This document shows positions 10,372 through 31,945 of a stretch of 32,596 nucleotides of DNA, one piece after another. Both the position numbers and the translations under genes were made by a program. The stretch is from Ruminococcus sp. (lineage in GTDB: Bacteria > Bacillota > Clostridia > Oscillospirales > Ruminococcaceae). Under the pieces are notes generated by a model, which was not told the origin of the DNA, searched no databases, and was given only the letters and a program-made list of their open reading frames with translations. Every line of letters begins with the position of its first letter. The first letter of the stretch is position 1. The stretch lies in contig JAFXSC010000023.1 in the NCBI GenBank assembly GCA_017525915.1, positions 1-32,596 on the forward strand, given 5' to 3'.

Positions 10372-10903
10372 ATTCAAATCCCTCCTTTTCCAGCACTGAT
10401 CTGAGCGCAGCCTTTGCCCGGTAGAGGATATTTTCTATCTGGCGCTTGCTTTTACGCATGATATCAGCTATTTCAGCGTTGCTGAGCCCCTCGAAGTACG
10501 ACAGGTGGAGAGCCTGACGGTAATCCGGAGCGAGGCTGTTCATAGCGCGGTGGAGAGCGATGCGCTGCTCCTCGCGCAGGTAGGAGTTTTCAAGGGAATG
10601 CTCGTCCGCAAGGTCAGTCTCTTCAAGGGGGAGGGAAGATCTGTGCTTGCGGAGGTAGTCAACTGCGGCGTTCCTGCCGATAGAGTAGAGCCATGTCTTG
10701 AACGCGCTTTTGCCCGAAAATCTGGGCTTTTTGACGGCTATGCGGAAGAAGGTCTCCTCGGTCATTTCCTCGGCGAGGGAGTAGCTGCCGGTAATTCCCA
10801 TGAGGTAGAGCATAAGTCCGTCCGTGTAATCGCGTATCATATCAACGAGGCCGCTGTCATCTCCGTCGAGATAACGGCGGTAATATTCTGCACCGCAGTC
10901 CAT
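10358..10903 (-). CDS. ECF-type RNA polymerase sigma factor (sigma-70 family)
   Basis: 181 residues with region 2 at about 20-88 (including EEMTEETFFRIAVKK and FKTWLYSIGRNAAVDYLR) and region 4 at about 118-172 (LSNAEIADIMRKSKRQIENI is the helix-turn-helix). There is no region 3 or 1.1, as expected for the ECF class. It directs RNA polymerase to a small regulon, normally including its own promoter. It starts at an ATG with an AGGAGG site and is translationally coupled to the downstream Thr-rich membrane protein. I did not find a convincing ECF promoter; a weak CGACTA-like element lies about 30 nt upstream of the start. Target genes are unknown; the nearby exporter or surface protein are possible. 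Confidence 0.9.
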   Translation of the reverse strand: MDCGAEYYRRYLDGDDSGLVDMIRDYTDGLMLYLMGITGSYSLAEEMTEETFFRIAVKKPRFSGKSAFKTWLYSIGRNAAVDYLRKHRSSLPLEETDLADEHSLENSYLREEQRIALHRAMNSLAPDYRQALHLSYFEGLSNAEIADIMRKSKRQIENILYRAKAALRSVLEKEGFEYEIV

Positions 10904-11006: not shown

Positions 11007-11705
11007 TCAATAGCCAAGTTTCTCCGCAATTATGCGGCAGACTTCCTCCTTGCAGCCGGTATAGTAGAAATGTCCGCCGGAAAAGCCGATTACCTCACAC
11101 CTTCCGGAGGTGAAGCGTTCCCAGCTTCTCATATCCACGCCCTGCATAAGAACATCGTCCTCGCCGTAGAATACCGTGATATCGCATTCAAGTCCGACCT
11201 CCGCCGGAGTTGTCCTGTACCTTTCAGCCATTCGCACATCTGTACAGAGTATGCGGCTGAGCGTCCGCATAAGCTCCTCATCGGGAACAGGCGCATTGGA
11301 CGAAAGCGAGTTCTTCGCAAAGAAAGAGACTATCTCCTCATCGGTCGCATTTTCCACGTTCTCGAAGCAGCGGACGTCCTCATCGGGAGGGTTCTTGCCG
11401 GAGAAGAAAACGTGTACCGGCAGTTTCAGACCCTTCGCCCTCGCCTGACGGACAAGCTCACACGCAAGGACGGTCCCCATGCTGTGACCGAATATCGCGT
11501 ATTCCTCATCTGCGAGGACATCGCGGTGCTTGTCTATGAGGTCGGAAACGCAGTCCTCAACGGTATCAAGAAGAGGGTCGCCCGGACGCGTGAAACGTCC
11601 GGAAAGCTCCATAGTCACTACCTTCAGCTCCTTCGGCAGAAAGCGCCTGAACGAGCTGTAACTCCTTGCGGAGCCGCCTGCGTGGGGCAGGAAGAGCAGT
11701 ACCAC
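11007..11705 (-). CDS. Type II thioesterase (GrsT/RifR-like alpha/beta hydrolase)
   Basis: 232 residues starting at a GTG with a GAGGAA site 6 nt upstream. The N-terminus LLFLPHAGGSARSY is the hallmark of type II thioesterases of PKS/NRPS systems. The nucleophile is Ser75 in GHSMG; the acid is in YGEDDVLM (near residue 190) and the catalytic His is in GGHFYY near the C-terminus. Such enzymes release aberrant or stalled acyl groups from phosphopantetheine arms, or off-load products. It is the last gene of the cluster, 3 nt after the ACP gene, so its substrate is probably acyl-ACP. It is the strongest single indication that this is a specialised assembly line and not housekeeping lipid synthesis. 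Confidence 0.88.
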   Translation of the reverse strand: MVLLFLPHAGGSARSYSSFRRFLPKELKVVTMELSGRFTRPGDPLLDTVEDCVSDLIDKHRDVLADEEYAIFGHSMGTVLACELVRQARAKGLKLPVHVFFSGKNPPDEDVRCFENVENATDEEIVSFFAKNSLSSNAPVPDEELMRTLSRILCTDVRMAERYRTTPAEVGLECDITVFYGEDDVLMQGVDMRSWERFTSGRCEVIGFSGGHFYYTGCKEEVCRIIAEKLGY

Positions 11706-11708
11706 AGC

Positions 11709-11960
11709 TTATTCCTCTACGGGAGTGCCCTTCTCGTTGAGAAGGTCGAATATCTCGCCTACCCTGCTGATAGATGCAACGAGCGAGAGCGGAATATTGA
11801 GCTTGTAGTTCTCGGTTATCTGTGAGCCGAGACCGAAAAGTCCCAGTGAATCGAGGTAGAGGTCGTCATAGACGTCCGTCTCGCGGTTTATCTCAGAAGC
11901 GTCAACGCCGGTATAGTCGGCGATGGTCTGTACGAATTCATCAAAGTTAAGGTTATTCAT
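11709..11960 (-). CDS. Acyl carrier protein (first ACP)
   Basis: An 83-residue acidic protein with the carrier-protein motif LYLDSLGLF; Ser38 is the expected phosphopantetheine attachment site. The usual Gly before DSL is replaced by Leu. It overlaps the acyl ligase stop codon by 1 nt (TAATG), which suggests the ligase loads this ACP with a starter acyl group (inference from coupling). It is clearly different from the second ACP at 20403-20705. No phosphopantetheinyl transferase is in the window. Confidence 0.88.
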   Translation of the reverse strand: MNNLNFDEFVQTIADYTGVDASEINRETDVYDDLYLDSLGLFGLGSQITENYKLNIPLSLVASISRVGEIFDLLNEKGTPVEE

Positions 11961-13519
11961 TATTTATACTCCTTCTTTCTCAGGTATTTGAACTGTATCT
12001 TGCCGATGTCCTTCGGTATCTCCTCAACGAGTATCACCTTGTCGGGCACCTTGTAGGCAGAGAGCTTGCCGTCGAAATACTTCGCAAGCTCGCCGCGTGT
12101 CACCTTCTCGTCGCCCTTCGGCTGGATATAGGCAACTATCTGCTGACCGATAACGGGATGCGGCTCGTCTGTGACTGCTGCGGCAGCTATCTTCGGGTGA
12201 GTGAGCAGACAGGCTTCTACCTCCTCGGCGTGAACGAGGTTGCCGCCGCGCTTGATGATACGCTTGCTTCTTCCGGCAAATCTCACGATACCGCCGGGGA
12301 GCTTGTTTACGAGGTCGCCTGTGCAGAACCAGCGGCGTCCCTGTTCGTCGGTGAGTATCTTCTCCGCGGAAAGCTCAGGGTTGCCGAAATAGTTGAGGAT
12401 AACGCCGTCTGTATATACGCAGAGCTCGCCGGTCTCGCCCTCGGGAACTTCATTGTGCTTCTCGTCGATAACGCGGACATCCGTGAAGCTGAGCTTCTTG
12501 AAGTCGCTGGGGTCAGTGCCGTGGTCGATAGCGGAGTCCCACACTACCATAGTGCAGGTCTCGGACGAGCCGATAACGTTGATAACGCGGATATTCAGCT
12601 TCTCCACGAATACATCAGCTATCTCCTTCGGGAGGACTTCGCCTGCGAAGTAGCATATGCGGACGCTTGAAAGGTCGTACTTGTCGAAATCGGGGGTCGA
12701 GAGCAGCACCTTTGCAAGGGTGGAGGTGAGCTGTATCACGTTTATCCTGTACTTCTGGACTGTCTCGAGGAAGTCGATGGGATTGAACTGCGGCTGGTAC
12801 ATCACCGTGCCGCCCTTGAGCATCATCTGGAGACCCATGCCGAAGCCGCCCTGATGATAGAGGGTCATGCCGAGCATCATAACGTCGTCAGCCCTGAATT
12901 CGAGGTAGTCGCCCATTTCCTTCTGTGTGGAGAGGAAGCCGCCGGAGGGTACTGAGAGTATCTTGGGAGTGCCGGTAGAGCCTGATGTGCAGGCAAGGGA
13001 TATGGTGTGGAGATAGTCAGGCTTGTAGATATCGCACTCTGTACCGCAGTATTCAGCGATGAACTTCTCAGCAGAGATGTATGTGCTGTCAGCCGGAACA
13101 CTCTCCTCGGGGGCAAAGCAGATGACCTTTGCGAGCTGTATCTTTCCGGGAACGAGGTCGCTCACCGCCTTGACGATGTTGTTGGTGCGGTACTTCTCGG
13201 AGATGAACATTATCTTCGATGTGGTGGCAGGGATGAGCCTTGAAAGCTCGAGCGAACCGCTCTGGGGGTCCATAGGAACAGGCTGGGCGCCTATCCTTAC
13301 AGCAGACCAGAACACGATGTACCACTCGATGCTGTTGGGCATACAGATGCCGACCTTGTCGTCCTCGCCGATGCCGAGGGACTTCATACCGGAGGCAAGA
13401 ACAGCGGTCTTAGCCATGAGATCGGCGTAGGTAAGCTCTTTTTCGTCTATTCTCAGGAGCACCTTGTCGGGTGTTTCCTGAGCGTACTTTGCAAAGTAGT
13501 CATAGAAGCAATTGTTCAT
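11960..13519 (-). CDS. AMP-dependent acyl-CoA/acyl-ACP ligase
   Basis: 519 residues, the usual length of the ANL superfamily. Motifs include the phosphate loop CTSGSTGTPK (177-186), VIGSSET for the adenine site, CTGDL with the ATP-ribose Asp, GRSKRIIKRGGNLV as the hinge region, and a C-terminal IGKIQ Lys (about residue 508) for adenylation. It should activate a carboxylic acid as acyl-AMP and transfer it to CoA or to the adjacent ACP. The N-terminal fold resembles medium or aryl acyl ligases; the acid substrate cannot be predicted safely. Preceded by an AAAGGAT site and a hairpin. Confidence 0.88.
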   Translation of the reverse strand: MNNCFYDYFAKYAQETPDKVLLRIDEKELTYADLMAKTAVLASGMKSLGIGEDDKVGICMPNSIEWYIVFWSAVRIGAQPVPMDPQSGSLELSRLIPATTSKIMFISEKYRTNNIVKAVSDLVPGKIQLAKVICFAPEESVPADSTYISAEKFIAEYCGTECDIYKPDYLHTISLACTSGSTGTPKILSVPSGGFLSTQKEMGDYLEFRADDVMMLGMTLYHQGGFGMGLQMMLKGGTVMYQPQFNPIDFLETVQKYRINVIQLTSTLAKVLLSTPDFDKYDLSSVRICYFAGEVLPKEIADVFVEKLNIRVINVIGSSETCTMVVWDSAIDHGTDPSDFKKLSFTDVRVIDEKHNEVPEGETGELCVYTDGVILNYFGNPELSAEKILTDEQGRRWFCTGDLVNKLPGGIVRFAGRSKRIIKRGGNLVHAEEVEACLLTHPKIAAAAVTDEPHPVIGQQIVAYIQPKGDEKVTRGELAKYFDGKLSAYKVPDKVILVEEIPKDIGKIQFKYLRKKEYK

Positions 13520-13541
13520 TTACTTTTATCCTTTCGATTTT

Positions 13542-13563
13542 TGCAGGGGACACCGTCCCTGCA
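13542..13563 (-). promoter_or_regulatory. Hairpin in the hydrolase-ligase intergenic gap
   Basis: TGCAGGG (13542-13548) and CCCTGCA (13557-13563) form a 7-bp stem just upstream of the ligase ribosome site. No T-run follows on the minus strand, so it is not an ordinary terminator; an mRNA processing or stability element is possible. Confidence 0.3.
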
Positions 13564-13569
13564 CATTAA

Positions 13570-14691
13570 TTACGCATTCTTAACAAGTCTTGCTGCGAGG
13601 AAGTCCGCGGCGATGTGCTTTACCCAGTGGTACTGCTCGCCGACCGGCATTGCGTGCATGATAGTCTCCTCGGAAACATATGCAGGCTTGTCCTCGATGT
13701 GGATAGACTCCTTGTAGCCGGTAGCCTTGTCGAGGAGCTTCTGTGAAGCCTCGGGGGTCATCCAGTTGTCATCGGAGCTGTAAACCATGAGGAAGTCCGC
13801 CTTGTGAGTGCCCTCCTCCAGAACGCGCATACCTTCGAGGTAGTCCTCGGAATACTGGTAGCTGCTCCACTTGCCGCGCTTCATCCATACGGGAATGCTT
13901 CCCTGATCGGCAAAGTTCATCAGCAGCGGGAAAAGACTTACGCAAGCCTTTGCCCTGGGGTTCTTGACAGTCGCGCGGAAGGCGTATCCGCCGCCCATGC
14001 AAAGACCGAAGTTCGCCATATTCTTCTCGTCGAGCTTCTTATGCTCCTTCACGAATTTCTTTATGCCGTCAAATGCAGCTTCGAGCTGTTTTCCGCCGCA
14101 CTTGATGTTGTTGTGGATAATAGCCGCGCCTGCACCGGGCATATCGGGAGTGATAACGGCAATGCCGCGCTCATTGAGGGGAGCAGCGAGCATTTCGAGC
14201 TCCTCCTTGCAGCTTCCTATGCCGGAGAAGGTCACAACGGTGGGATAGCCGGTCTTTCTTCCGGCATCGGGATAGTGGATATAAGCCGGGAGCTTGCCGA
14301 ATTTGGTATCTATCTCAGCGTACTCTATCCTGTTCTTGCAGAGCTTTGTGTAGTGGCGGTAGCTCTCCTCCAGACCGGAGTAGATAGCTCTCTTGTGTTC
14401 AACGTCCTCAATATTTATCATAAAGCAGGCGTAATTGCACTCTGCCACCATTTTTGCGTAAGCTCTTGCGGAAGCCTTGCTGCCGGCAGCCTCCGCCTTA
14501 TCGCGGAGCTCGGTATAGCGTGCGATCTTCTCGTTCCACTCGCCGAGCCATACCTCCTGTATCTTCCTGCCGCTCATGGTCTTGATAGCGTCCACCTTTT
14601 TGAGGATAGCCTCAATGTCGAAGGGGTCGCTGCCGTAGAGCATCGAACGTGTTACGACTGGGTTAAGCAGGTCTCTTATTGCCCATTTCAT
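13570..14691 (-). CDS. Alpha/beta hydrolase with Cys nucleophile and N-terminal helical domain
   Basis: 373 residues. Residues 1-125 are a helical cap-like domain; 130-373 form the alpha/beta hydrolase core. The nucleophile elbow is GLCMGG with Cys231 instead of Ser, as in dienelactone hydrolases. The likely acid is Asp307/308 (SSDDNW) and the likely base His346 (IMHAMP). The overall layout (helical N-domain plus core) resembles 2,6-dihydroxypseudooxynicotine hydrolase and FrsA-like proteins, which cleave C-C or ester bonds. In this cluster it could release, hydrolyse or cyclise a polyketide-like intermediate (inference). The ATG is preceded by a GGAAAGGA site. The last codons (Asn-Ala-stop) fall in an AT-rich heptamer motif also found at the 3' end of the 17054-18184 gene. 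Confidence 0.78.
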   Translation of the reverse strand: MKWAIRDLLNPVVTRSMLYGSDPFDIEAILKKVDAIKTMSGRKIQEVWLGEWNEKIARYTELRDKAEAAGSKASARAYAKMVAECNYACFMINIEDVEHKRAIYSGLEESYRHYTKLCKNRIEYAEIDTKFGKLPAYIHYPDAGRKTGYPTVVTFSGIGSCKEELEMLAAPLNERGIAVITPDMPGAGAAIIHNNIKCGGKQLEAAFDGIKKFVKEHKKLDEKNMANFGLCMGGGYAFRATVKNPRAKACVSLFPLLMNFADQGSIPVWMKRGKWSSYQYSEDYLEGMRVLEEGTHKADFLMVYSSDDNWMTPEASQKLLDKATGYKESIHIEDKPAYVSEETIMHAMPVGEQYHWVKHIAADFLAARLVKNA

Positions 14692-14730
14692 ATTATATCT
14701 TTCCTTTCCATATTTAGTAAGAAGAGAGTA

Positions 14731-14750
14731 GTGTACCCTTGTACTCTTGC
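14731..14750 (+). repeat. Dispersed short repeat, copy 1 (CCCTTGTACTCTTGC)
   Basis: The core CCCTTGTACTCTTGC also occurs at 21902-21916 (nearly identical) and in inverted orientation at 15751-15765. All three copies are intergenic. Confidence 0.5.
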
Positions 14751-14786
14751 TTTCTTCCGCCTCGGGTGCATTATCTGCATTGCTGT

Positions 14787-15143
14787 TCAGGGCGTGTATT
14801 TCCAGGCGCCCTCGCGCGTCATCTCGGTGAACTGCATATAGACCCGGTAAGGGTCAGCGTGAGTGTGCTTCTGTATCAGAGCAAGCATACGGTCGGCAAG
14901 CTCTTTCAGGAAGCCGGACTTGTTGTCCGCGTACTCCTGCGGAAGAATATAGCGGAACTCGGCGAAGAATACCGTGTCCTCGGACTGGTTCATGTACATG
15001 GGACACTGGTCGAGCATTATCATTATAGCCGGAAGCGGCTTGCAGAGTATATCGGCAAGCTCCCTTGAAGCTTCGTCCAGAAAAGCTGTGCGGTCTTCCG
15101 GAGCAGCGAATGTATAGTTGGTCTTCATCTGTGCTATTGGCAT
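14787..15143 (-). CDS. MIF-family tautomerase-like protein
   Basis: 118 residues beginning Met-Pro-Ile, so removal of Met would expose the catalytic Pro of the tautomerase superfamily. The length and the C-terminal pattern DPYRVYMQFTEM...GAW match macrophage migration inhibitory factor and phenylpyruvate tautomerase rather than the 60-residue 4-oxalocrotonate type. Expected reaction: keto-enol tautomerisation, probably as a trimer. An AAGGAG site lies 6 nt upstream. It lies between the repeat block and the hydrolase gene, in the same direction as the biosynthetic genes. A role in isomerising or aromatising a keto-intermediate is inference; a host-directed MIF mimic is an alternative, although no signal peptide is present. 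Confidence 0.8.
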   Translation of the reverse strand: MPIAQMKTNYTFAAPEDRTAFLDEASRELADILCKPLPAIMIMLDQCPMYMNQSEDTVFFAEFRYILPQEYADNKSGFLKELADRMLALIQKHTHADPYRVYMQFTEMTREGAWKYTP

Positions 15144-15196
15144 AGTTATCTCCTTAGTTATTAATGGTTAGCAGGGGCGTATTCCGTGCGCCCGTG

Positions 15197-15262
15197 GTCT
15201 GTATTTACAATGCCGGCTGTCTGGATTTACAATGCCAGCCGTCTGGACTTACAATGCCAGCC
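15197..15262 (+). repeat. 22-bp tandem repeat, three copies
   Basis: Three head-to-tail copies at 15197-15218, 15219-15240 and 15241-15262, with core TTACAATGCC; the copies differ at a few positions. No spacers, so not CRISPR. Confidence 0.85.
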
Positions 15263-15278
15263 GACCTCTGGTTCGGCG
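15241..15278 (+). repeat. Left arm of a 38-bp inverted repeat pair
   Basis: The reverse complement matches 15626-15663 at 36 of 38 positions. The two arms bound a 423-bp interval, the size and structure of a MITE. Confidence 0.75.
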
Positions 15279-15591
15279 AAGAAAGTTCAAAAATCGGCAA
15301 AGGGTGGGAGGAAAAGGGGGAGAGGGAAAAGAGAGTGCAGAGGGGAAAACCGTAGGGGGAAAAGGAGGGAGGGAAATGCCGATTTTTGTACCAGTTTAGT
15401 TTTGCCCTCCCTCCTTTGCCACCGAAGGTGTTCCCCTTTGCTGAGGACAGAAACTAAGCCTTTTGCTGAACGGTGAGTTCAAGCCTTTTAACGAGAGGGA
15501 AAAGGAGGCAGGAAAAATGAGAAAACGTTAAACCAAGCTGCCGTGAGCGAACGGAGACTTCCGGTCTGCATGGAGTGAGCGAGCTTGCGAG

Positions 15592-15753
15592 CGGCATCGT
15601 GGAAGGGTGCAGCGTCACGCTGCTCCGCCGAACCAGAGGTCGGCTGGCTTTGTAAGTCCATACGGCATCGTGGAAGGGTGCAGCATCACGCTGCTCCGCC
15701 GAACCAGAGGTCGGCTTCCCTTTTTCTTGCGAGCGGCATCGTGGAAGGGTGCA
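15592..15753 (+). repeat. 54-bp direct repeats (two full, one partial copy)
   Basis: 15592-15645 and 15663-15716 differ at one base. A 20-bp partial copy is at 15734-15753, sharing the preceding CTTGCGAG with the first copy. Each full copy contains the near-palindrome GCAGCGTCACGCTGC. Confidence 0.85.
15626..15663 (-). repeat. Right arm of the 38-bp inverted repeat pair
   Basis: Inverted partner of 15241-15278, with two mismatches. It overlaps the first 54-bp direct repeat, so the repeats are composite. Confidence 0.75.
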
Positions 15754-15776
15754 AGAGTACAAGGGGACACGTTTGT
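15751..15776 (-). repeat. Dispersed short repeat, inverted copy
   Basis: Read on the minus strand this 26-bp segment matches 21892-21916 over 25 bp with one mismatch, and its core matches 14735-14750. Confidence 0.6.
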
Positions 15777-15792
15777 CCTTAGCGTTCTCTGC

Positions 15793-17004
15793 TCACTGGT
15801 ACTTGCGGAAAACGAGCGTAGCGTTATGACCGCCGAAGCCGAAGGAATTGGAAATAGCAGCATTCACGGTATGCTCCTGCGGCTTGTTGGGAACGTAGTT
15901 GAGGTCAAGCTCGGGGTCGGGCTCGTCATAGTGGATAGTCGGCGGTACTATGCCGGTCTCCATTGCCTTGATGCAGGCGATAGCCTCGAGTGCGCCGCCG
16001 GCAGCGAGTGTATGTCCGATAGAAGCCTTTACGGAAGATACCGGTATATCGTAAGCCCTTGCGCCGAATACCTCCTTGACCGCCTTTGTCTCGTAGAGGT
16101 CGTTAAGACCTGTGGAAGTGCCGTGCGCGTTGATGTAGTCCACCTCGTCAGGGGACATTCCTGCGTTCTCCAGAGCCATTTTCATAGACCTTACCATGCC
16201 TACGCCGTCGGTCTTGGGAGCGGTAAGGTTGAACGCTTCGCTGCACATTGAAGCACCGGCAAGCTCACAGTATATCTTTGCTCCTCTTGCCTTTGCACTC
16301 TCCTCCGATTCGAGGATAACGGTACCGCCGCCTTCGCCCATGATGAAGCCGTCACGGTTCTTTGTGAAGGGACGTGCAGCGGTCGCCGGGTCGGGATTGA
16401 CAGACATCGCAAGGAGCTGATTGAAGCCGCTGATAACGAGGTGGGTAACTGTATTGGAGATACCTCCGCAGACCACCATATCGCAGGTGCCGTTCTCGAT
16501 GAACTGCTTGCCGAGCGCCATAGCATAAGCCGAGGAAGCGCAGGCAGTGCTCAGGTTGAAGGAAGGACCGCCGAAGCCGTACCTGATAGACACGAGAGCC
16601 GGAAGCTCGTTCGGCATTTTTTTCAGTGTGATATTGAGGGGCTTTTCAAGCTCATAGTCCTCGTAGGAATTGTCGATAACGCCGTAGATAACGCCTACCC
16701 TGCCGAGGTCATAGCCCTCTGCATCGCAGATGCCGCAGTCCGCAACAGCCTCGCCTGCGGAAGCAAGACCCATTCTGGTGGTGGTAGTGGTGGCGTTGAG
16801 CTGGCGCTTTTTCCAGTATTTAGCGGCTTCCTCCTCGAAGGAATCGTCCACCTGTGCCGCAACGGTGGTGTCATGTCCCTCAGTGGGGACACGGTCGAAG
16901 GTACGCATACCGCACTTGCCTGCGAGGAGACCCTCCCAGTAGTCAGCGACGTTGTGTCCGACAGAGGTAACTGCGCCGAGACCGGTGATAACTACTTTTT
17001 TCAT
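15793..17004 (-). CDS. Beta-ketoacyl-ACP synthase, FabF/KAS II type
   Basis: 403 residues from the ATG at 17004 (KKVVITGLG start; an AAAGGAT site is 6 nt upstream). An upstream in-frame start at 17040 would add 12 non-conserved residues and is rejected. The catalytic triad is complete: Cys155 (TACASS), His294 (NAHGTST) and His331 (KASIGHT), with Lys326 and the GFGGHN loop (389-394). It performs decarboxylative condensation of malonyl-ACP with an acyl-ACP. The intact Cys argues against a chain-length-factor or decarboxylase-only role. No second ketosynthase (CLF) is present in the window. It is followed by the repeat-rich gap. It sits in a specialised context, so the housekeeping fabF name is not assigned. 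Confidence 0.9.
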   Translation of the reverse strand: MKKVVITGLGAVTSVGHNVADYWEGLLAGKCGMRTFDRVPTEGHDTTVAAQVDDSFEEEAAKYWKKRQLNATTTTTRMGLASAGEAVADCGICDAEGYDLGRVGVIYGVIDNSYEDYELEKPLNITLKKMPNELPALVSIRYGFGGPSFNLSTACASSAYAMALGKQFIENGTCDMVVCGGISNTVTHLVISGFNQLLAMSVNPDPATAARPFTKNRDGFIMGEGGGTVILESEESAKARGAKIYCELAGASMCSEAFNLTAPKTDGVGMVRSMKMALENAGMSPDEVDYINAHGTSTGLNDLYETKAVKEVFGARAYDIPVSSVKASIGHTLAAGGALEAIACIKAMETGIVPPTIHYDEPDPELDLNYVPNKPQEHTVNAAISNSFGFGGHNATLVFRKYQ

Positions 17005-17023
17005 ATTCTTATCCTTTCTTTCT

Positions 17024-17065
17024 AATTCCGAATTCCGCATTACGAATTAATAATTACGCATTAAT
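17024..17065. repeat. Heptanucleotide repeat (six AT-rich 7-mers)
   Basis: Six consecutive 7-mers: AATTCCG, AATTCCG, CATTACG, AATTAAT, AATTACG, CATTAAT. The array runs into the 3' end of the dehydrogenase gene and supplies its last three codons and stop. Similar 7-mer arrays occur at 21933-21960 and probably around 20773-20800. Confidence 0.7.
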
Positions 17066-18184
17066 AAGGTGTTTGTCCCAGACGGACTTATCCTTGTGCT
17101 CGTATGAGCCGAAGCCGGTACAGCCGGCGAGCCTGTCGAGCTCGGCAAATATAGCGTCCGCACCGTATTCCTTATAATAGTCGGCAAGCGTTTCCGCAAG
17201 TCCGAGAGTGTCCTGCACAGCCTCCATGAACAGTCCCTCATCGCAGCCGGGCTCGTCCTCAAGGGCGTTCACATACTCGTTGAGTATCAGCGATACCATG
17301 CTCAGCGCGGCATTTCCGGTATCGGCATCGGTATCGTTCTCCCTCCCGCTGATGAAGTCGAGGAAGCTCAGAGGCTCCTTCGGGCAGCCCTGCTCCAGCC
17401 ATTCGCTCATGCGTCCGCAGCTGTAACCGAGAAGGCTCCTGTTCCTCTCTATGCGGAAGGCGTCAGGCTTTCCGCCCATAAGTCCGAGACCTATGCTGTC
17501 GAGTATCTCGAAGGCGTCCGCGACCGTATAAAGTCCGGATATCGCCTTCCTTATCTCCTTAACGGAAGCACCTGTGCTGTCATGGAGGTAGATAGCGTGA
17601 GCGACCATGCAGGAGAGTATCTGGTTGAGGTAGATGTGGTACTCGTCCGCGAAAACTATGGGCTTCTTGCCGGCAGCCTTTACCAGTTCAGCCGCCTTTT
17701 CGATGTTCTTCTTTGAATTGCCGGGGAGAATATTCAGCTCAACGAAGCCCGTGAGCTTTACCGGATAGAAGAAGTGCATACCGAAGCAGCGCTCCTTGCC
17801 GGAGATATCCGCAAATACCTCCGCAATATCAAGGGACGATGTGTTGGTGAGAAGGAGACAGTCCTCGCGGACAATGCCTGCAAGCTTTGCGAAAAGCTCC
17901 TTCTTCACGCCCATATTCTCGAAAACAGCCTCGATAACGAGGTCACAGTCCGCCATATCCTCCGCCCTATCGGTAAAGAGGAAGGCTTCCTTTCTGGCGT
18001 CGTACTGCTCCTGCGTGAGCTTCTTGCGCCTGAGCTGCTTGTCGAGGGTCTTTATGAGTGCGGCAGAGTTCTCCTCAGCGCCGAAGGTGTCCAGCACAAC
18101 GAACTCCGCACCGTCTATCTTGTCGAAGAACAGGGAGAAGATATCCCTGCCCATTTTTCCGTAGCCGACTATACCTATCTTCAT
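17054..18184 (-). CDS. 3-hydroxyacyl-CoA dehydrogenase family protein
   Basis: 376 residues. The N-terminal Rossmann domain has GYGKMG (7-12). The catalytic region contains NTSSL (114-118), His137 in HFFYPV, Glu149, and Asn187 in LNQI, all expected for NAD-dependent 3-hydroxyacyl-CoA dehydrogenase. It is about 90 residues longer than the usual 280-residue HbdA/PaaH form; the extra length lies in the C-terminal helical domains. In this cluster it is the only candidate for beta-ketoacyl reduction, in place of a FabG-type SDR (inference). Its start overlaps the upstream crotonase stop by 4 nt (ATGA). The last residues (Ile-Asn-Ala) are encoded by a heptanucleotide repeat. Confidence 0.85.
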   Translation of the reverse strand: MKIGIVGYGKMGRDIFSLFFDKIDGAEFVVLDTFGAEENSAALIKTLDKQLRRKKLTQEQYDARKEAFLFTDRAEDMADCDLVIEAVFENMGVKKELFAKLAGIVREDCLLLTNTSSLDIAEVFADISGKERCFGMHFFYPVKLTGFVELNILPGNSKKNIEKAAELVKAAGKKPIVFADEYHIYLNQILSCMVAHAIYLHDSTGASVKEIRKAISGLYTVADAFEILDSIGLGLMGGKPDAFRIERNRSLLGYSCGRMSEWLEQGCPKEPLSFLDFISGRENDTDADTGNAALSMVSLILNEYVNALEDEPGCDEGLFMEAVQDTLGLAETLADYYKEYGADAIFAELDRLAGCTGFGSYEHKDKSVWDKHLINA

Positions 18185-18873
18185 AGCTCAGTCTCCTTGT
18201 AGTCCTGCATGATAGTCTTAGCCTTGCCGGGGACGAAATCTCCCCTTGCGGCGATGTATCCGATGAGCTTTTCAGCCGCAGGGATACCCTGCTTCTTCTC
18301 GGCAAATATATCCGCCCAGCCTATCTCATAAGCTCTCTCGGCAGGTATAAGTTCGCCCGACATGACGAGCTCGTAGGCATTCTGAAATCCGCATATATCA
18401 ATAGTCCTTGCAACACCGCCGAGCGCCGGAAGTATGCCGAAGGTGGACTCAGGCTGACCCACACGCGCGTTCTTCTCGATTATCCTGTAATGGCTGTTTA
18501 CCGCTATCTCGCTGCCGGAGCCTATGCAGAAGCCGGTCACTACGCTTACCACCGGGAAGGGCAGTCCGCGCAGGAAGGTGAAGAAGTGCTTCTGTCGGAT
18601 ATGTCCTGCCGGAAGCTCACCAGTAGCATCATCGTAGCTCTCGTCCGCGGAACGCTGTGCAAGCGCCTCAACGTCCGCACCTGTACTGAAATGGCGTCCG
18701 CCGCCGCATATTATCATGCCCTTTATGCCGCCGGACTTTGCCCTTTCCTCGACCTCAGCCATAACTGCTTCGTAATCGCGGAAGAAATCTGCGGTCATGA
18801 GATTGTTCGAGGGGGCATTCATAGTAAGGCGGAGTATGCCGTTTTCCTCTGTGAGGAGCATTGTATCACTCAT
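18181..18873 (-). CDS. Enoyl-CoA hydratase/isomerase (crotonase) A
   Basis: 230 residues from the ATG at 18873, which has GGAGG 8 nt upstream; the GTG at 18882 is part of that ribosome site. Crotonase motifs: GRHFSTGADV (first oxyanion-hole segment), GSGSEIAV with the equivalent of Glu144 and VGQPESTFG with the equivalent of Glu164 of rat crotonase, so hydratase/dehydratase chemistry is possible. It would remove water from a 3-hydroxyacyl thioester made by the adjacent dehydrogenase, with which it is translationally coupled. Related beta-branching ECH enzymes of trans-AT PKS are an alternative, but no HMG synthase is seen here. Confidence 0.85.
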   Translation of the reverse strand: MSDTMLLTEENGILRLTMNAPSNNLMTADFFRDYEAVMAEVEERAKSGGIKGMIICGGGRHFSTGADVEALAQRSADESYDDATGELPAGHIRQKHFFTFLRGLPFPVVSVVTGFCIGSGSEIAVNSHYRIIEKNARVGQPESTFGILPALGGVARTIDICGFQNAYELVMSGELIPAERAYEIGWADIFAEKKQGIPAAEKLIGYIAARGDFVPGKAKTIMQDYKETEL

Positions 18874-19285
18874 TGCCGGCACCTCCGTTCTTCTCTGCCA
18901 TAAGGCGGTAGAAGGCTCTGGACTCGCACGCGAGTATGTCCTCCTGAGAGCCTGTTCTTGCCGCGATGAAGCACTTGTTTATCTCGTGTATCTGCTTTTC
19001 GGTCTTGTCCTTGAAAAGCTTTCCGGCGAAGTCCTCCGCGTCCCCTGCCGGTATCACCATATCGAAAGCGCCGCTTATATCCGCGCTGACGCTCTCTGCG
19101 TCATCAGCCGCAAAAGCCGTAATGAAGGGGATATCCGCCGGGAAGGAAGCGTCCGCCCTGAAGTCAGCGCCGCCGTATACGATGAGCATACAGGGCTGAC
19201 CGAGAGCCGCAGTATCGCCGCAGACCTGAGAGAGCGACTGTGTCTCCCTTACCTCTGTCACAAGTTCCATTTTATTGATCTTCAT
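18866..19285 (-). CDS. Small protein, possibly a crotonase-like fragment without active site
   Basis: 139 residues; I do not recognise a family with certainty. The middle (LIVYGGADFRADASFPADIPF) and the C-terminal helix (EDILACESRAFYRLM) look like parts of a crotonase fold. The GGG-E and G-PE catalytic segments are missing, so it is unlikely to be an active hydratase. It overlaps both neighbours (hot-dog thioesterase and crotonase A) by 8-14 nt, in frame with strong coupling, so it is a real translated gene and not a shadow. It might be a scaffold or partner of crotonase A. Confidence 0.7.
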   Translation of the reverse strand: MKINKMELVTEVRETQSLSQVCGDTAALGQPCMLIVYGGADFRADASFPADIPFITAFAADDAESVSADISGAFDMVIPAGDAEDFAGKLFKDKTEKQIHEINKCFIAARTGSQEDILACESRAFYRLMAEKNGGAGNE

Positions 19286-19682
19286 TTTCCATCTTCTCCA
19301 GACATTCCCTTACCGCCTCCGGGATATCGCATATCATCCTGTCCTTGTTGACATATGCGAGCTTTCCCGTAACGCGGCAGGCAACGAGTCCTGTGTTCTT
19401 GTTTATGATATTGTGCTTGTAGCTCAGTATCCCTCCGGTACAGCTCATCTCCGTGTCTATACGCACGTCGTCCATGAGCCTGAGCTCGTGTATATAGCGC
19501 TGTGTGCTCTCGAGGACTACCGGGAAAAGCCCCTCGTCCACGATGATATCGAGCAGACCGTTCACCTTGAAGAAATTCCACAGTGCAGTCTCCGCATATT
19601 GCAGATATACCGAGTTATTGACGTGTCCGAAGGAATCGAGCTCATAGCCGCGCACCGTAAGCGAATAGGTGCTGTGCCTCAT
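19272..19682 (-). CDS. Acyl-CoA/ACP thioesterase, hot-dog fold (4HBT family)
   Basis: 136 residues with the family signature YELDSFGHVNNSVYLQYAE; Asp16 is the likely catalytic residue of the 4-hydroxybenzoyl-CoA thioesterase (YbgC/FatA-like) class. Normal length for the family. Its start overlaps the stop of crotonase B by 4 nt (ATGA) and GGAGG precedes it. It probably releases the finished acyl chain from ACP or CoA, which makes it the second thioesterase of the cluster besides the type II enzyme at 11007. Confidence 0.85.
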   Translation of the reverse strand: MRHSTYSLTVRGYELDSFGHVNNSVYLQYAETALWNFFKVNGLLDIIVDEGLFPVVLESTQRYIHELRLMDDVRIDTEMSCTGGILSYKHNIINKNTGLVACRVTGKLAYVNKDRMICDIPEAVRECLEKMENEDQ

Positions 19683-20392
19683 TTATCCCTCGCCTCCAGA
19701 GCTCTCTCGAACTGTCCGTCAGAGGGGTCGGTCATGCCCTTTGCGGCATTGTTGAAGGTTTCAATGATGGCGTGTATCTGCGCGAGGGACTTGCCCTCCA
19801 TGAGCTGCTTTACGAAAGCCATAGTCTCATCGAAGGAGTTCTTCTCCGTGCTGAGCTTAGTCACAAGACCGATGTCCAGCGCGTCCTTTGCCGGTATCAT
19901 CTCGCCGGCAAGTATCATCTGCAATGCCTTTTCCTTACCGAGAAGGCGGTAAAGTCTCTCCATGCCGCCCATGCCCGGAACTACGCCGTGCATTATCTCC
20001 GGAAGTCCCAGAAATGCAGAGGGAGATGCTATCCTGAACTGACAGGAAAGCGCTATTTCAAGTCCGCCGCCGAAGCAGCCGCCGTTTATTGCAGCAGCGG
20101 TAATTATCGGCAGTCCCTCTATCGTGCGGAGGAGCTCCCTCGCACTGCGGAGCTTGTCCGAGAGCACGTCGGTGCCCTCACTGCCGAACAGCGAAACGTC
20201 TGCGCCGTGGGAGAAATGCCTGCCCTTTCCTACAATAACAAGAGCCCCTACCTGCGGATTTTCGTCCAGCCAGCCAAGGAGCTCCCTGCGGTCTATAAAT
20301 TCCGGCTCAGTGAGCAGGTTCTTGGGACCGTTGTCAATAGTAAGAACGGCGATATTATCCTCGGCGCGAAGCTCTGATAATTTCGACCTCAT
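19679..20392 (-). CDS. Enoyl-CoA hydratase/isomerase (crotonase) B
   Basis: 237 residues. Motifs: GRHFSHGADVSLF (oxyanion segment), FGGGLEIALS with the first catalytic Glu and FLGLPEIMHG with the second, then VPGMGGMERL. Both acid/base residues are present, so it is a competent hydratase or isomerase. It differs clearly from crotonase A, so the two may act at successive steps (dehydration, then double-bond isomerisation or a later cycle). It starts 10 nt after the second ACP gene, with AAGGTG as ribosome site. Confidence 0.87.
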   Translation of the reverse strand: MRSKLSELRAEDNIAVLTIDNGPKNLLTEPEFIDRRELLGWLDENPQVGALVIVGKGRHFSHGADVSLFGSEGTDVLSDKLRSARELLRTIEGLPIITAAAINGGCFGGGLEIALSCQFRIASPSAFLGLPEIMHGVVPGMGGMERLYRLLGKEKALQMILAGEMIPAKDALDIGLVTKLSTEKNSFDETMAFVKQLMEGKSLAQIHAIIETFNNAAKGMTDPSDGQFERALEARDK

Positions 20393-20402
20393 TCAGATCA
20401 CC

Positions 20403-20705
20403 TTACTGATTGACGATATCGTTTCCGTACTGATAGATCTTGCAGAACATATCAACAACGCTGCTCATTGTGTCCATAGGCGACTTGAGCATATACTTGC
20501 CGATGCTCTGGAGCTTGATATCGAGGCCGTACTTGTCAGCGGTCATCTCGATGAGCTCAACGAACATGAGTGAATCGCTTCCGAGGTCTTCCTGCGGATT
20601 TGTGTCCATAGTGATCTCGTCGCGGTCAACTTCACATTCCTCTGCGTAGTAATCGAAGATCATGTCCTTGATCTCCTGTCTGATCTGATCTGTAAGTTCT
20701 CTCAT
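20403..20705 (-). CDS. Acyl carrier protein (second ACP)
   Basis: A 100-residue acidic protein with LGSDSLMFVEL; Ser45 is the expected phosphopantetheine site. It is somewhat longer than a standard 75-80-residue ACP, with an extended N-terminus and C-terminus. GGAGG lies 9 nt upstream of the ATG. Position between the acyltransferase and crotonase B suggests it carries the growing chain, while the ACP at 11709 may carry the starter (inference). Confidence 0.9.
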   Translation of the reverse strand: MRELTDQIRQEIKDMIFDYYAEECEVDRDEITMDTNPQEDLGSDSLMFVELIEMTADKYGLDIKLQSIGKYMLKSPMDTMSSVVDMFCKIYQYGNDIVNQ

Positions 20706-20797
20706 TTTAATAAGCCTCCATGTTATTTTGAGTTTATAATATACTGCCCATCCGGACAGCGGAACAAAACTTGGTTGTTAGTGCTTGGCTCGTAGTT
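20706..20797. other. Short intergenic gap with 7-mer-like repeat remnants
   Basis: 92 bp between the AT and ACP genes. On the minus strand it can be read as 7-mers (AGAACTA, CGAGCCA, AGCACTA, ACAACCA), similar in style to the arrays at 17024 and 21933. No terminator is evident, so the two genes are probably cotranscribed. Confidence 0.4.
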
Positions 20798-21697
20798 CTA
20801 AGCAAGTACATCTTCAAGGGAATACATCCTGCACTTTCCGCGTGCGACACGCGAGAACTTCTTCACCGCGCCGTTCGCACTCACGTCATAGAACTCCGTG
20901 ACGCCAAGGCGTTCGAGCTCCTTCAGCGTAAGGTCCCAGCGGATAGGGGTGTAGCAGTTTATGACATTCTCCCTCATCACCTCGTCACCGGTGGTTATCA
21001 TGCGGCAGTCGAAGCCGGATATCATGGGATATACCGGGTCGCTGTACGCTATCGAGGTGCAGAAGTCGTTGTACTCCTTCGTGTAAGCCTCCATTACCGG
21101 GTGGTGGTAGGCAACGCCTGTGCCGAAGCTGAAAGCCTTCAGCGCACCGCCTTCAAGGGCATACCCGAGAGCTTCCTCTATCTTGTCGGCTCTGCCGCTT
21201 ATCATGACGTGGAAGCTGGAGTTTCCGCTTCCTACGATGAGCTCGTCCGGTGAAAAGCGCCTGCTGAGGTACTCGGACGCTTCCTCGTAGCTCATGCCGA
21301 TGATAACGCCCATATCGAGCTTCATGTTGTTCTGCTCAAGGCACTTCATAGTGGAGCGGTTCATCATGATTATATCGTGGGCAAATTCGTGGCTCACCGA
21401 GCCGAAGCACGCGCTGATGCTGACGATGCCGGAGCTGTAACCGGCACCGATATCGGGGACTATCCCCTGTTCGATGTAGTATTCAAATACGACCCTGTCG
21501 CAGATAAGGGAAATGACCCATTCGGCAACGCGGCCGTTGTAAGCGGAATTCTTTTCTATATCCTTGTTGAGTCCGAGCCTTGAAAAAGCATCATCGAGGT
21601 AGCTCTCGTACTTCTCCATAAGCATAGGGGGAAGGTTTATGAGTAGCTTTTCGGGCTTGGAGCCTATCCCGTTGAAAAGGAATGCACGTTTAAGCAT
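20798..21697 (-). CDS. Malonyl-CoA:ACP transacylase-like acyltransferase (trans-AT)
   Basis: 299 residues from the ATG at 21697, which has AAGGAG 7 nt upstream; an earlier in-frame TTG at 21715 lies over the ribosome site and is rejected. FabD fold: nucleophile Ser88 in GYSSG, Arg114 (MMNRSTM) at the position that binds the malonyl carboxylate, Asn159 in GNSSFHVMISG, and His198 in AYHHPVM. The usual His of GHSxG is Tyr and the usual Met-Gln after the Arg is changed, so it is diverged. It should load malonyl (or a related) extender unit onto ACP in trans. It is the first gene of the cluster, behind a TTGACA promoter. Confidence 0.87.
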   Translation of the reverse strand: MLKRAFLFNGIGSKPEKLLINLPPMLMEKYESYLDDAFSRLGLNKDIEKNSAYNGRVAEWVISLICDRVVFEYYIEQGIVPDIGAGYSSGIVSISACFGSVSHEFAHDIIMMNRSTMKCLEQNNMKLDMGVIIGMSYEEASEYLSRRFSPDELIVGSGNSSFHVMISGRADKIEEALGYALEGGALKAFSFGTGVAYHHPVMEAYTKEYNDFCTSIAYSDPVYPMISGFDCRMITTGDEVMRENVINCYTPIRWDLTLKELERLGVTEFYDVSANGAVKKFSRVARGKCRMYSLEDVLA

Positions 21698-21727
21698 CAC
21701 ACATCTCCTTATCAAATTTATACTTCA

Positions 21728-21756
21728 ATATTATCATTATATAGGCGTGATGTCAA
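21728..21756 (-). promoter_or_regulatory. Promoter of the biosynthetic cluster
   Basis: On the minus strand: -35 TTGACA (21756-21751), 17-bp spacer, -10 TAATAT (21733-21728). This places the start of transcription about 25 nt upstream of the acyltransferase ATG. Confidence 0.7.
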
Positions 21757-21891
21757 GAAGAATATTGCGGTTTCAGCGGATTTCTGGGAATTTGACGAAA
21801 ACGCGCCGAAATATAACAGAATTTTATATATTTTTGCGTTTATACTACTTGTATACTAACCATAAATTGCGTTTTGGTGCTGACGCTGACA

Positions 21892-21924
21892 ACAAACGTG
21901 CCCCCTTGTACTCTTGTACTCTTG
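21892..21924 (+). repeat. Dispersed short repeat, copy with internal 8-nt duplication
   Basis: 21892-21916 matches the inverse of 15751-15776 with one mismatch; the 8-mer TTGTACTC is duplicated here. Confidence 0.6.
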
Positions 21925-21932
21925 CGCCCCTA

Positions 21933-21960
21933 CACTATGCACTACGCACTAATAACTGAT
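21933..21960 (+). repeat. Heptanucleotide repeat (four 7-mers)
   Basis: CACTATG, CACTACG, CACTAAT, AACTGAT in tandem. The pattern matches the style of the array at 17024-17065 with a changed first base pair set, typical of short tandemly repeated repetitive (STRR) sequences. Confidence 0.6.
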
Positions 21961-21982
21961 ATGCACTTATAACCGGCAGGTC

Positions 21983-22011
21983 TTGCTATTCCAGTGCAAA
22001 TGTGCTATAAT
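21983..22011 (+). promoter_or_regulatory. Promoter of the two-component system
   Basis: -35 TTGCTA (21983-21988), 17-bp spacer, -10 TATAAT (22006-22011) with TGTGC immediately before it (extended -10). Confidence 0.7.
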
Positions 22012-22052
22012 ACATTATATAAGATACAAAACCGTTTGCTGGAGGTGATGCC

Positions 22053-23749: not shown

Positions 23750-23790
23750 GCAGCGGCGCACACTGTGCGCCACTGCAAGCTAAAGGCTGA

Positions 23791-23820
23791 AAAAGCTCCC
23801 CTTATCGGGGAGCTTTTCTT
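23791..23820. terminator. Bidirectional terminator between convergent genes
   Basis: AAAAGCTCCCC and CGGGGAGCTTTT form a stem of about 11 bp with a TTAT loop, flanked by A-run and T-run, so it can act on both strands. It ends exactly at the stop codon of the minus-strand fusion gene. Confidence 0.85.
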
Positions 23821-27979: not shown

Positions 27980-28029
27980 ATTTACCTCCTGACAAAAAAT
28001 CAGGTATATGCGTATCCGCACACTCTACT

Positions 28030-28058
28030 ATTTTAGCACAGCGGTTTCCCAATGTCAA
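28030..28058 (-). promoter_or_regulatory. Strong promoter of the paralogue-1 operon
   Basis: On the minus strand: -35 TTGACA (28058-28053), 17-bp spacer, -10 TAAAAT (28035-28030) preceded by TGC (extended -10). Confidence 0.8.
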
Positions 28059-28087
28059 GGAAGCGCCTATAAATTGAGCAATTATAA

Positions 28088-28118
28088 CAAAAAAAGCACA
28101 CTTGCCAGCGTGCTTTTT
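28088..28118 (-). terminator. Terminator after paralogue 2
   Basis: AAAAAGCACGCT / AGTGTGCTTTTT on the minus strand forms a stem with a GGCA loop and a T-run, about 37 nt after the stop at 28156. The A-run on the other side makes it potentially bidirectional. Confidence 0.85.
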
Positions 28119-28155
28119 CAATCCGTGTTCATCATGTGAAAGCCCCCGGACGCCG

Positions 28156-29910: not shown

Positions 29911-29922
29911 AGTTACACCGCC

Positions 29923-31905: not shown

Positions 31906-31945
31906 ATTCATCCTCTTTTCTTGTCATGATAAGATAATACACTAT

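What the first reader, a model, noticed from the sequence alone, without database searches (positions are those of the whole stretch)
11007..21697. Hybrid assembly line: PKS/FAS-type KS, AT and ACPs with beta-oxidation-type reduction and dehydration enzymes
Seen: AT, ACP, crotonase B, hot-dog thioesterase, crotonase-like fragment, crotonase A, 3-hydroxyacyl-CoA dehydrogenase, FabF-type KS with an intact Cys-His-His, then tautomerase, hydrolase, acyl ligase, a second ACP and a type II thioesterase, all on one strand and mostly overlapping. Known: type II PKS and aryl polyene lines use FabG/FabZ-like partners, and beta-branching cassettes carry an HMG synthase. Here neither is visible, and a 3HAD plus crotonases take those places. 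There is also no enoyl reductase or CLF in the window. Inference: an iterative line making a short unsaturated or cyclised acyl product from an acid activated by the ligase. I know of no characterised cluster with this gene set.
Basis: partly seen in the sequence, partly recalled or inferred. Interest (0 to 1): 0.85.

Follow-up and report, generated by a model that had tools for sequence, protein, structure and literature searches.

The report
Candidate polyene-pigment gene cassette, Ruminococcus
A conserved set of 13 genes in cellulose-digesting gut bacteria looks like an assembly line for a chain of alternating double bonds, built with enzymes normally used to burn fat, and it is the best candidate found here for the unexplained yellow pigment of Ruminococcus flavefaciens.

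Summary
The gene set is real: 13 minus-strand genes, 11007-21697 (AT, ACP1, ECH-B, hot-dog thioesterase, crotonase-like fragment, ECH-A, 3HAD, KS, tautomerase, hydrolase, ligase, ACP2, type II thioesterase), in a Ruminococcus near R. flavefaciens. By tblastn all 13 occur in 41 of 57 fetched relatives, 40 in the same order; 12 of the other 16 are cut by contig ends. Most presumed catalytic residues are invariant. The host has a separate fatty-acid locus and the cassette KS forms its own clade. The 'crotonase fragment' is a presumed dead ECH-B paralogue, fused to ECH-A in two relatives. In 396 genomes of the family the 3HAD marker is in 13, all carrying cellulase GH48 (53 of 396). KS, ketoreductase and dehydratase without enoyl reductase predict a polyene. 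R. flavefaciens makes a yellow pigment on cellulose; a 2025 paper found neither cex cluster nor celluxanthenes in strain DSM 25089. In this host and strain 007c the only KS besides FabF is the cassette's. Best reading: a discrete iterative polyene synthase using beta-oxidation-type reduction and dehydration, probably the R. flavefaciens pigment locus. The product is inferred. Against: R. albus untested and reported yellow too; window G+C above that given for R. flavefaciens.

The parts
20798..21697 (-). AT: FabD-like acyltransferase (malonyl loading of ACP1 proposed)
   Evidence: TIGR00128 71.2 bits, under its cut-off; 1mla FabD 1.1e-10; GYSSG Ser94 in 50 of 50, His204 in 50 of 50, malonyl-type Arg120 in 40 of 50 homologues; ATG at codon 7 of the TTG ORF
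20403..20705 (-). ACP1
   Evidence: PF00550 2.1e-6; Ser45 in 54 of 54
19679..20392 (-). ECH-B: crotonase-fold dehydratase
   Evidence: PF00378 1.3e-35; both catalytic-type Glu (112, 132) in 55 of 55
19272..19682 (-). hot-dog thioesterase (4HBT_2); shares its fold with FabZ (recalled), so a dehydratase role is not excluded
   Evidence: PF13279 1.4e-17; GHVNN His and Asn in 54 of 54
18866..19285 (-). presumed non-catalytic crotonase-like subunit, paralogue of ECH-B
   Evidence: hhalign of the long form to ECH-B 86.7%, E 4.9e-7, short form 25%; fused to ECH-A in L082 and L100
18181..18882 (-). ECH-A: crotonase-fold dehydratase
   Evidence: PF00378 1.8e-25; both Glu (125, 145) in 56 of 56
17054..18184 (-). 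3HAD: L-3-hydroxyacyl-type dehydrogenase, proposed beta-keto reductase
   Evidence: PF02737 2.1e-40; 4kug 3-hydroxybutyryl-CoA dehydrogenase 2.5e-35; Ser116, His137, Glu149, Asn187 in 56 of 56
15793..17004 (-). KS: single FabF-like ketosynthase with intact Cys-His-His
   Evidence: TIGR03150 424 bits against cut-off 493.75; catalytic residues 56 of 56; own clade
14787..15143 (-). MIF-type tautomerase, Pro after the initiator Met
   Evidence: profile match to MIF structures 2.3e-10; Pro in 54 of 54
13570..14691 (-). alpha/beta hydrolase, FrsA/DHPON-hydrolase/Ayg1-like, presumed Cys nucleophile
   Evidence: 2jbw 1.2e-8, 8qd7 2.2e-5; Cys231 53 of 53, Asp308 53 of 53, His355 52 of 53 with one gap
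11960..13519 (-). acyl/aryl acid ligase (adenylating)
   Evidence: PF00501 2.8e-61; after multi-stretch hits to gramicidin synthase, the best full-length structure matches include salicylate-AMP ligase 1.4e-41, DHB-AMP ligase and 4-coumarate-CoA ligase
11709..11960 (-). ACP2, proposed starter-unit carrier
   Evidence: PF00550 1.2e-7; Ser38 in 49 of 49; overlaps the ligase gene by 1 bp
11007..11705 (-). type II thioesterase
   Evidence: PF00975 7.1e-29; Ser75 and His212 in 49 of 49

Best explanation
A self-contained, discrete (type II-like) iterative polyene synthase. AT loads malonyl on ACP1; the ligase activates a starter acid, plausibly an aryl or short acyl acid, and loads it on ACP2; one FabF-like KS condenses; the 3HAD reduces the beta-keto group to an L-3-hydroxyacyl-ACP; ECH-A and ECH-B, helped by a non-catalytic crotonase subunit, dehydrate it. 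With no enoyl reductase, repetition leaves conjugated double bonds. The hydrolase, tautomerase and two thioesterases finish, edit and release the chain. The most likely product is the yellow, cellulose-associated pigment of Ruminococcus flavefaciens. Shown: gene content, conservation, conserved catalytic residues, separation from fatty-acid synthesis, association with GH48-bearing lineages. Inferred: substrates, ACP-bound chemistry, number of cycles, the pigment.
For: 13-gene unit in 41 of 57 loci. Catalytic residues of KS, 3HAD and both ECHs invariant in 55-56 homologues. KS clade apart from FabF of the same genomes, 100/99 support, stem 1.17. FAS elsewhere in the host. 3HAD marker in 13 of 396 family genomes, all 13 GH48-positive, GH48 in 53 of 396; 5 of 126 genera, all within the 14 GH48 genera (P 1.1e-12 and 8.2e-6). 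The cassette tree rejects the window's genus as one clade (delta lnL 548), so the link is not a single inheritance. PMC9653558 (passage): R. flavefaciens often makes a characteristic yellow pigment, particularly on cellulose. PMC12144888 (text parts 1-2 of 4): strain DSM 25089 has no cex-like cluster and no celluxanthenes were detected in its cultures.
Against: No metabolite, expression or mutant data. 73 of 125 genomes of the genus had no 3HAD match (40 of the 68 good-quality ones) although GH48 is in 112 of 125 (68 of 68), and 40 of the 53 GH48-positive genomes of the family draw lack the marker, so cellulolysis does not require it. One genome with the R. flavefaciens 16S primer site (G111, 90% complete) lacks it. 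R. albus could not be tested, and yellow pigment on cellulose is reported for R. albus isolates too (PMC11055587, abstract passage); a review says many cellulolytic ruminococci are pigmented (PMC9785684, passage). The window's G+C is 0.50-0.55, above the 39-44% that PMC8865330 (passage) gives for R. flavefaciens, so the host may be another species of the group. No dedicated aryl-starter gene, no PPTase in the cassette, no always-present exporter. Known discrete polyene lines use KS-CLF pairs; this has one KS. The relatives of the 3HAD and crotonases act on CoA esters (recalled). I could not establish that DSM 25089 itself carries the cassette.
Confidence: 0.45

Rival explanations
1. The same iterative line makes a polyene or polyunsaturated acyl metabolite that is not the yellow pigment, for example an antibiotic, a signal or a cell-envelope component of cellulolytic relatives.
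For: All the enzymology evidence. A DrrA-type ATPase with two permeases lies near it in the window, and one of the permeases was found in 20 of 57 loci. Yellow pigment is also reported for R. albus isolates (PMC11055587, abstract passage), whose cassette status is unknown.
Against: The GH48 association and the unexplained pigment of R. flavefaciens point to the pigment; no second candidate KS was found in the host or 007c.
Confidence: 0.31
2. The line runs one or two cycles and makes a short, cyclised or aromatic compound (for example a butenolide), shaped by the tautomerase and the Cys hydrolase. This is.
For: Tautomerase and hydrolase were each found in 54 of 57 loci. The hydrolase matches DHPON hydrolase and an Ayg1-like protein, which cleave C-C bonds in ketide-like substrates (recalled), and has a dienelactone-hydrolase-like Cys motif (motif recalled).
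Against: Two thioesterases and two catalytically intact ECHs beside a 3HAD fit repeated reduction better than a short cyclised ketide; weak evidence only.
Confidence: 0.16
3. It is an accessory fatty-acid or lipid pathway, for example making a special membrane acyl chain or supplying an unsaturated acid.
For: KS is FabF-like and passes the PRK07314 subfamily cut-off (419.6 against 387 bits).
Against: No enoyl reductase seen in the cassette; FAS with FabK elsewhere; patchy distribution that does not follow the genus.
Confidence: 0.06
4. The cassette is a decayed relic.
For: In the window a 649-bp repeat-rich stretch separates KS and tautomerase. In two relatives (G109, G093) the match to 3HAD runs through one stop. 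In L008 ECH-A matches only in three short pieces and the crotonase fragment was not detected.
Against: All 13 window ORFs are open; most presumed catalytic residues invariant in 49-56 homologues.
Confidence: 0.02

Closest known systems
Celluxanthene/flavoaffinin (cex/faf) cluster of Clostridium thermocellum (PMC12144888 parts 1-2 of 4; PMC11839114 part 1 of 3 and passages)
   Same: Anaerobic cellulolytic bacteria; chain built by KS, AT, KR, DH and ACP functions without enoyl reductase; AMP ligase, stand-alone ACP and alpha/beta hydrolase alongside; pigment linked to cellulose.
   Different: cex uses one type I iterative PKS with fused domains, two KASIII enzymes and a PPTase. Here every function is a separate protein, the reductase and dehydratases are 3HAD and crotonases, no KASIII or PPTase was seen, and there are a tautomerase and two thioesterases. 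Sequence homology to cex proteins was not tested.
Aryl polyene and highly reducing type II PKS (Ape, ishigamide) (PMC8358021, passages)
   Same: Discrete KS, KR, DH and ACP iterating to a conjugated chain.
   Different: Those use KS-CLF heterodimers (ApeO-ApeC, Iga11-Iga12) with KR and DH partners; here a single KS with no CLF, and 3HAD plus crotonases.
Beta-branching (HMG synthase) cassettes of trans-AT PKS (recalled)
   Same: Discrete AT, ACP and two ECHs in one operon.
   Different: No HMG synthase; KS keeps its active Cys (56 of 56); both ECHs keep both Glu; a 3HAD is present.
Methoxymalonyl-ACP pathways with a 3HAD (haliangicin hli, PMC4768178, passages)
   Same: A 3-hydroxyacyl-CoA dehydrogenase, ECHs and ACPs inside a polyketide cluster.
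   Different: There the 3HAD makes an extender unit; the cluster also has an FkbH-like protein, acyl-CoA dehydrogenases and O-methyltransferases, none of which is in the cassette.
Housekeeping type II FAS
   Same: FabF-like KS, FabD-like AT, ACP.
   Different: No FabG, FabZ, FabH or enoyl reductase seen; KS in a separate clade.

Membership tests
Housekeeping type II fatty acid synthase | KS clades with FabF of the same organisms | tested here: not met
   Separate clade 100/99, 39.7% identity to own FabF
Housekeeping type II fatty acid synthase | Enoyl reductase and FabG/FabZ in the set | tested here: not met
   No such model among the matches shown for the 13 proteins; they are at G000:C24
Aryl polyene / highly reducing type II PKS | KS-CLF heterodimer | tested here: not met
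   One KS, no second protein with ketoacyl-synthase domains in the cassette; two KS genes in the host in all
Aryl polyene / highly reducing type II PKS | Dedicated KR and DH of FabG/FabZ type | tested here: not met
   PF02737 and PF00378 proteins instead; the hot-dog protein matches thioesterase models
Aryl polyene / highly reducing type II PKS | Conjugated polyene product | not testable with these tools
   No chemistry available
HMG-synthase beta-branching cassette | HMG-CoA synthase homologue | tested here: not met
   None among the matches shown for the 13 proteins
HMG-synthase beta-branching cassette | Decarboxylase KS with Cys replaced (recalled) | tested here: not met
   Cys167 in 56 of 56
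Celluxanthene (cex) cluster | Type I iterative PKS (CexF) | tested here: not met
   Host has only two KS matches, in open frames of 417 and 422 aa
Celluxanthene (cex) cluster | Two KASIII enzymes in the cluster | tested here: not met
   No KASIII among the 13 proteins; only a sub-threshold PF08545 match within the KS (21.9 bits, cut-off 24)
Celluxanthene (cex) cluster | Homology of ligase, ACP and hydrolase to CexD, CexB, CexE | not tested
   Cex sequences were not fetched
Methoxymalonyl-ACP pathway | FkbH-like protein, acyl-CoA dehydrogenase, O-methyltransferase with the 3HAD | tested here: not met
   None among the matches shown for the 13 proteins
Crotonase superfamily (fragment ORF 18866-19285) | Sequence-profile kinship with a crotonase family | tested here: met
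   ECH-B 86.7% (L102 master, global), 84.7% local; 76.0% and 58.0% with L104 master; only 25% with the short window form; ECH-A 1.1% or less
Crotonase superfamily (fragment ORF 18866-19285) | Predicted crotonase fold | not tested
   Structure machine busy at every attempt (15 requests for this protein among); no model was made

The most novel reading that the evidence does not exclude
A new architecture of polyketide assembly line in which the ketoreductase and dehydratase are recruited from beta-oxidation (3HAD plus a crotonase pair with a non-catalytic crotonase subunit), so chain building runs through L-3-hydroxyacyl-ACP rather than the D-series of FabG/FabZ. Cellulolytic ruminococci and relatives evolved it, independently of the clostridial cex PKS, to make their own yellow cellulose-affinity pigment.
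Probability: 0.38. Interest if true: 0.86.

Novelty: new variant of a known kind. Interest (0 to 1): 0.72.

Why it matters
The yellow pigment of R. flavefaciens is in the species name and was once assumed to be the C. thermocellum pigment, yet the 2025 work that solved the C. thermocellum pigment found neither its cluster nor its compounds in R. flavefaciens DSM 25089. This gives a concrete 13-gene candidate and a deletable KS. If the chemistry holds, it adds a reductive polyketide logic built from beta-oxidation enzymes, with the opposite hydroxyl stereochemistry, to the known FabG/FabZ-type lines.

Tried and rejected
Housekeeping FAS: rejected by the KS tree and the separate FAS locus. HMG-synthase cassette and methoxymalonyl-ACP pathway: defining genes not seen. 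cex cluster: no type I PKS in the host. Carotenoid origin of the pigment: no PF00494 match in 12 of 12 genomes, while the control rings in 7 of 14.

Led nowhere: testing R. albus. pRUMAL01 DNA matched 0 of 125 genomes and an R. albus 16S primer 0 of 125; as the R. flavefaciens primer matched only 3 of 125, these empty answers do not even show whether R. albus is in the held set. The three were G001 and G002 (cassette marker present) and G111 (absent). The plasmid search with the KS gave 1303 records, all under 60% identity; only the best 15 were listed. PADLOC gave nothing for three proteins. Rfam on 21500-24000 gave two matches below gathering score. The FEMS 2020 paper on polyketides of ruminal bacteria, a likely place for an earlier mention, is not held. 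'Not in print' rests only on paper searches, of which the most direct (84) listed two papers; one was opened at passages, the other not at all.

Of the 16 loci without all 13 genes, 12 are cut by contig ends on the side of the missing genes. The other four: AT not found in L065, TEhd not found in L084; ECHfrag in L105 and L109 not found by tblastn, though an ORF of about 200 aa lies in its place. In L105 and L106 the hydrolase gene lies before KS. L091 (G030:C80) was dropped from counts as an unrelated 3HAD locus with 28% identity.
Full report
What is there. The window (32,596 bases, contig C43 of genome G000, 3.09 Mb, 99.9% complete) belongs to a Ruminococcus of the R. flavefaciens group: its nearest named relatives are genomes labelled R. 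flavefaciens or Ruminococcus sp., 59-82% identical in the 3HAD protein, with one Oscillospiraceae MAG at 49%. The G+C of the window, 0.50-0.55, lies above the 39-44% that PMC8865330 (passage) gives for R. flavefaciens, so the host may be a related species. On the minus strand, 21697 down to 11007, lie 13 genes in a row.

The unit and its limits. In a search of 125 genomes of the genus, 52 hold the 3HAD at E 1e-20 or better, 28 of the 68 good-quality ones. I fetched loci of up to 20 kb from 47 of those 52; the other five are the window itself and four already held as named loci (L003, L004, L005, L008). With 10 loci from other genera this makes 57 loci. By tblastn at E 0.01 or better, 41 hold all 13 genes and 40 have the same order. 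Of the other 16, 12 run into contig ends; the four exceptions are listed under Tried and rejected. Of the 11 named loci, which overlap this set, 8 show all 13 genes; in one of the others, L008, ECH-A matches only in three short pieces. Flanking genes change from relative to relative, so the 13 genes are the unit. An ABC exporter is a frequent neighbour (permease 2 in 20 of 57 loci) but not a constant one.

Catalytic state. In 49-56 homologues per family most presumed catalytic residues are invariant: KS Cys, His, Lys, His 56 of 56; 3HAD Ser, His, Glu, Asn 56 of 56; ECH-A two Glu 56 of 56; ECH-B two Glu 55 of 55; ACP serines 54 of 54 and 49 of 49; tautomerase Pro 54 of 54; hydrolase Cys231 and Asp308 53 of 53; AT Ser94 and His204 50 of 50. 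Exceptions: AT Arg120 in 40 of 50; ligase Asp402 in 50 of 52 (one Asn, one gap); ligase Lys511 in 50 of 52 (two gaps); the position I took for the TE2 acid is Glu, Asp, Gly, Ser or Asn. Homologues covering under 75% of the query or under 25% identical were left out. The residue roles are recalled from the families. The 3HAD profile matches 3-hydroxybutyryl-CoA dehydrogenase structures best (E 2.5e-35), which makes an L-3-hydroxyacyl product likely (recalled).

The crotonase-like subunit. The 139-aa ORF between the hot-dog thioesterase and ECH-A is about 135-150 aa in many relatives, about 190 aa in some of the same genus (L077, L081) and about 180-220 aa in seven loci of other genera (L102-L107, L109). 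With the long form of L102 as master, hhalign aligns it to ECH-B at 86.7% (global, E 4.9e-7) and 84.7% (local, residues 53-154); with L104 as master, 76.0% and 58.0%; ECH-A and eight other cassette families stay at or below 1.4%. With the short window form the match is weak (25%, E 7.6e-4, 32 columns). In both long-form alignments the second catalytic Glu of ECH-B faces a gap and the first a Ser or an Asp, so I presume it is not catalytic. In two genomes (loci L082 and L100) it is fused to ECH-A in one frame, and in G009 a satellite locus holds AT, this ORF, ECH-A and KS together. I read it as a partner of ECH-A. No structure model could be made; the queue was full at every attempt.

Not fatty-acid synthesis. 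The host has exactly two KS matches. The other lies in a FAS locus with FabH, FabK, FabG, FabF, AccB, FabZ, AccC, AccD, AccA and FabD nearby. In a tree of 42 KS proteins, 25 cassette KSs and one from the G009 satellite form one clade (100/99, stem 1.17 changes per column) apart from the FabFs of the same genomes. The tool warns that long branches meet there, so the exact place of the outlying rows is unsure.

Distribution. In 396 genomes drawn from the family (unnamed by the tool; Ruminococcaceae by inference) the cassette's 3HAD is in 13, in 5 of 126 genera; in 394 genomes drawn from the order only the window's own genome has it. GH48, a marker I use for cellulose degradation (recalled), is in 53 of the 396 and 14 of 126 genera. 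All 13 marker genomes have GH48: 1.1e-12 by genomes, 8.2e-6 by genera. The genome figure ignores kinship. A quick tree of 30 chosen loci and six proteins rejects the window's genus as one clade (delta lnL 548, p-AU 9e-71; some rows are long or odd in composition), so the cassette has moved between, or been lost many times among, these lineages. Against a strict link: 40 of the 53 GH48-positive genomes lack the marker, and within the genus 112 of 125 have GH48 but only 52 the marker.

Proposed chemistry. AT-malonyl-ACP1, one KS, a 3HAD as ketoreductase, crotonases as dehydratases and no enoyl reductase predict repeated addition of a C=C unit, a polyene. Among the best full-length structure matches of the ligase are aryl-acid enzymes (salicylate-AMP ligase, DHB-AMP ligase, 4-coumarate-CoA ligase), so an aryl starter on ACP2 is possible but not shown. 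The hydrolase resembles DHPON hydrolase and an Ayg1-like protein but has an invariant Cys at the presumed nucleophile position; with the tautomerase it may shorten, cyclise or release the chain. These last steps are guesses.

The pigment. R. flavefaciens often makes a characteristic yellow pigment, particularly on cellulose (PMC9653558, passage; PMC8865330, passage). PMC12144888 (text parts 1 and 2 of 4; passages) identified the C. thermocellum pigment as celluxanthenes and states that R. [quoted passage not shown] DSM 25089 is strain 17 (PMC6456569, passage). I could not confirm that strain 17 carries the cassette, but R. flavefaciens 007c does (L009). No phytoene/squalene synthase was found in 12 of 12 genomes, G011 among them. 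So if the pigment is a ketide polyene, this is the only PF00109-type KS candidate in those two draft genomes. Against: R. albus, the obvious contrast, could not be tested; isolates identified as R. albus are also reported to make yellow pigment on cellulose (PMC11055587, abstract passage), while PMC8865330 (passage) describes unpigmented isolates as closer to R. albus; a review notes that many cellulolytic ruminococci are pigmented, the intensity roughly following cellulolytic ability (PMC9785684, passage).

Novelty. The parts are known families, and making polyenes with discrete proteins is known (aryl polyene and ishigamide lines, PMC8358021, passages). A 3HAD in a polyketide cluster is known for extender-unit supply (haliangicin, PMC4768178, passages). 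A 3HAD plus crotonase pair as the reductive loop of a KS-AT-ACP line did not appear in the paper searches made (listed under Tried and rejected); one likely source was not held, and no BGC database could be searched. I file it as a new variant of a known kind.

Noticed in passing
15144-15792: A 649-bp stretch between KS and tautomerase, rich in repeats: three 22-nt and 2.4 71-nt tandem units with 44-nt inverted arms. A 29-nt piece of it was found in 3 of 126 loci, all three from the window's own genome; named relatives have gaps of about 15-75 bp here.
   Followed up: partly
G009:C1:1936470-1939841 (locus L126 7471-10842): A satellite locus with only AT, the crotonase-like ORF, ECH-A and KS, next to a gene that looks like a serine recombinase (by eye, not searched), in a genome that also has the whole cassette.
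   Followed up: partly
23819-25840: A fusion of a YidC/60KD_IMP membrane insertase domain with a CDP-glycerol glycerophosphotransferase-like domain, at 81-89% identity in the relatives where it was seen.
   Followed up: no
26147-31911: Three tandem paralogous membrane proteins, one scanned as PF00884 sulfatase, with stretches of 69-84% DNA identity between copies; possibly lipoteichoic-acid-synthase-like.
   Followed up: no
2-5530: A large surface protein (over 1843 aa, cut by the window end) with seven matched SpaA prealbumin-like domains.
   Followed up: no
9346-10903: An ECF sigma factor followed by a Thr-rich protein; in the closest named relative (L001) a similar pair lies upstream of the cassette on the opposite strand, so it may or may not regulate it.
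   Followed up: no
G008:C2:205923-216646: One cassette-bearing genome also has four KS matches in large open frames (1215-1492 aa), probably a separate type I PKS locus.
   Followed up: no
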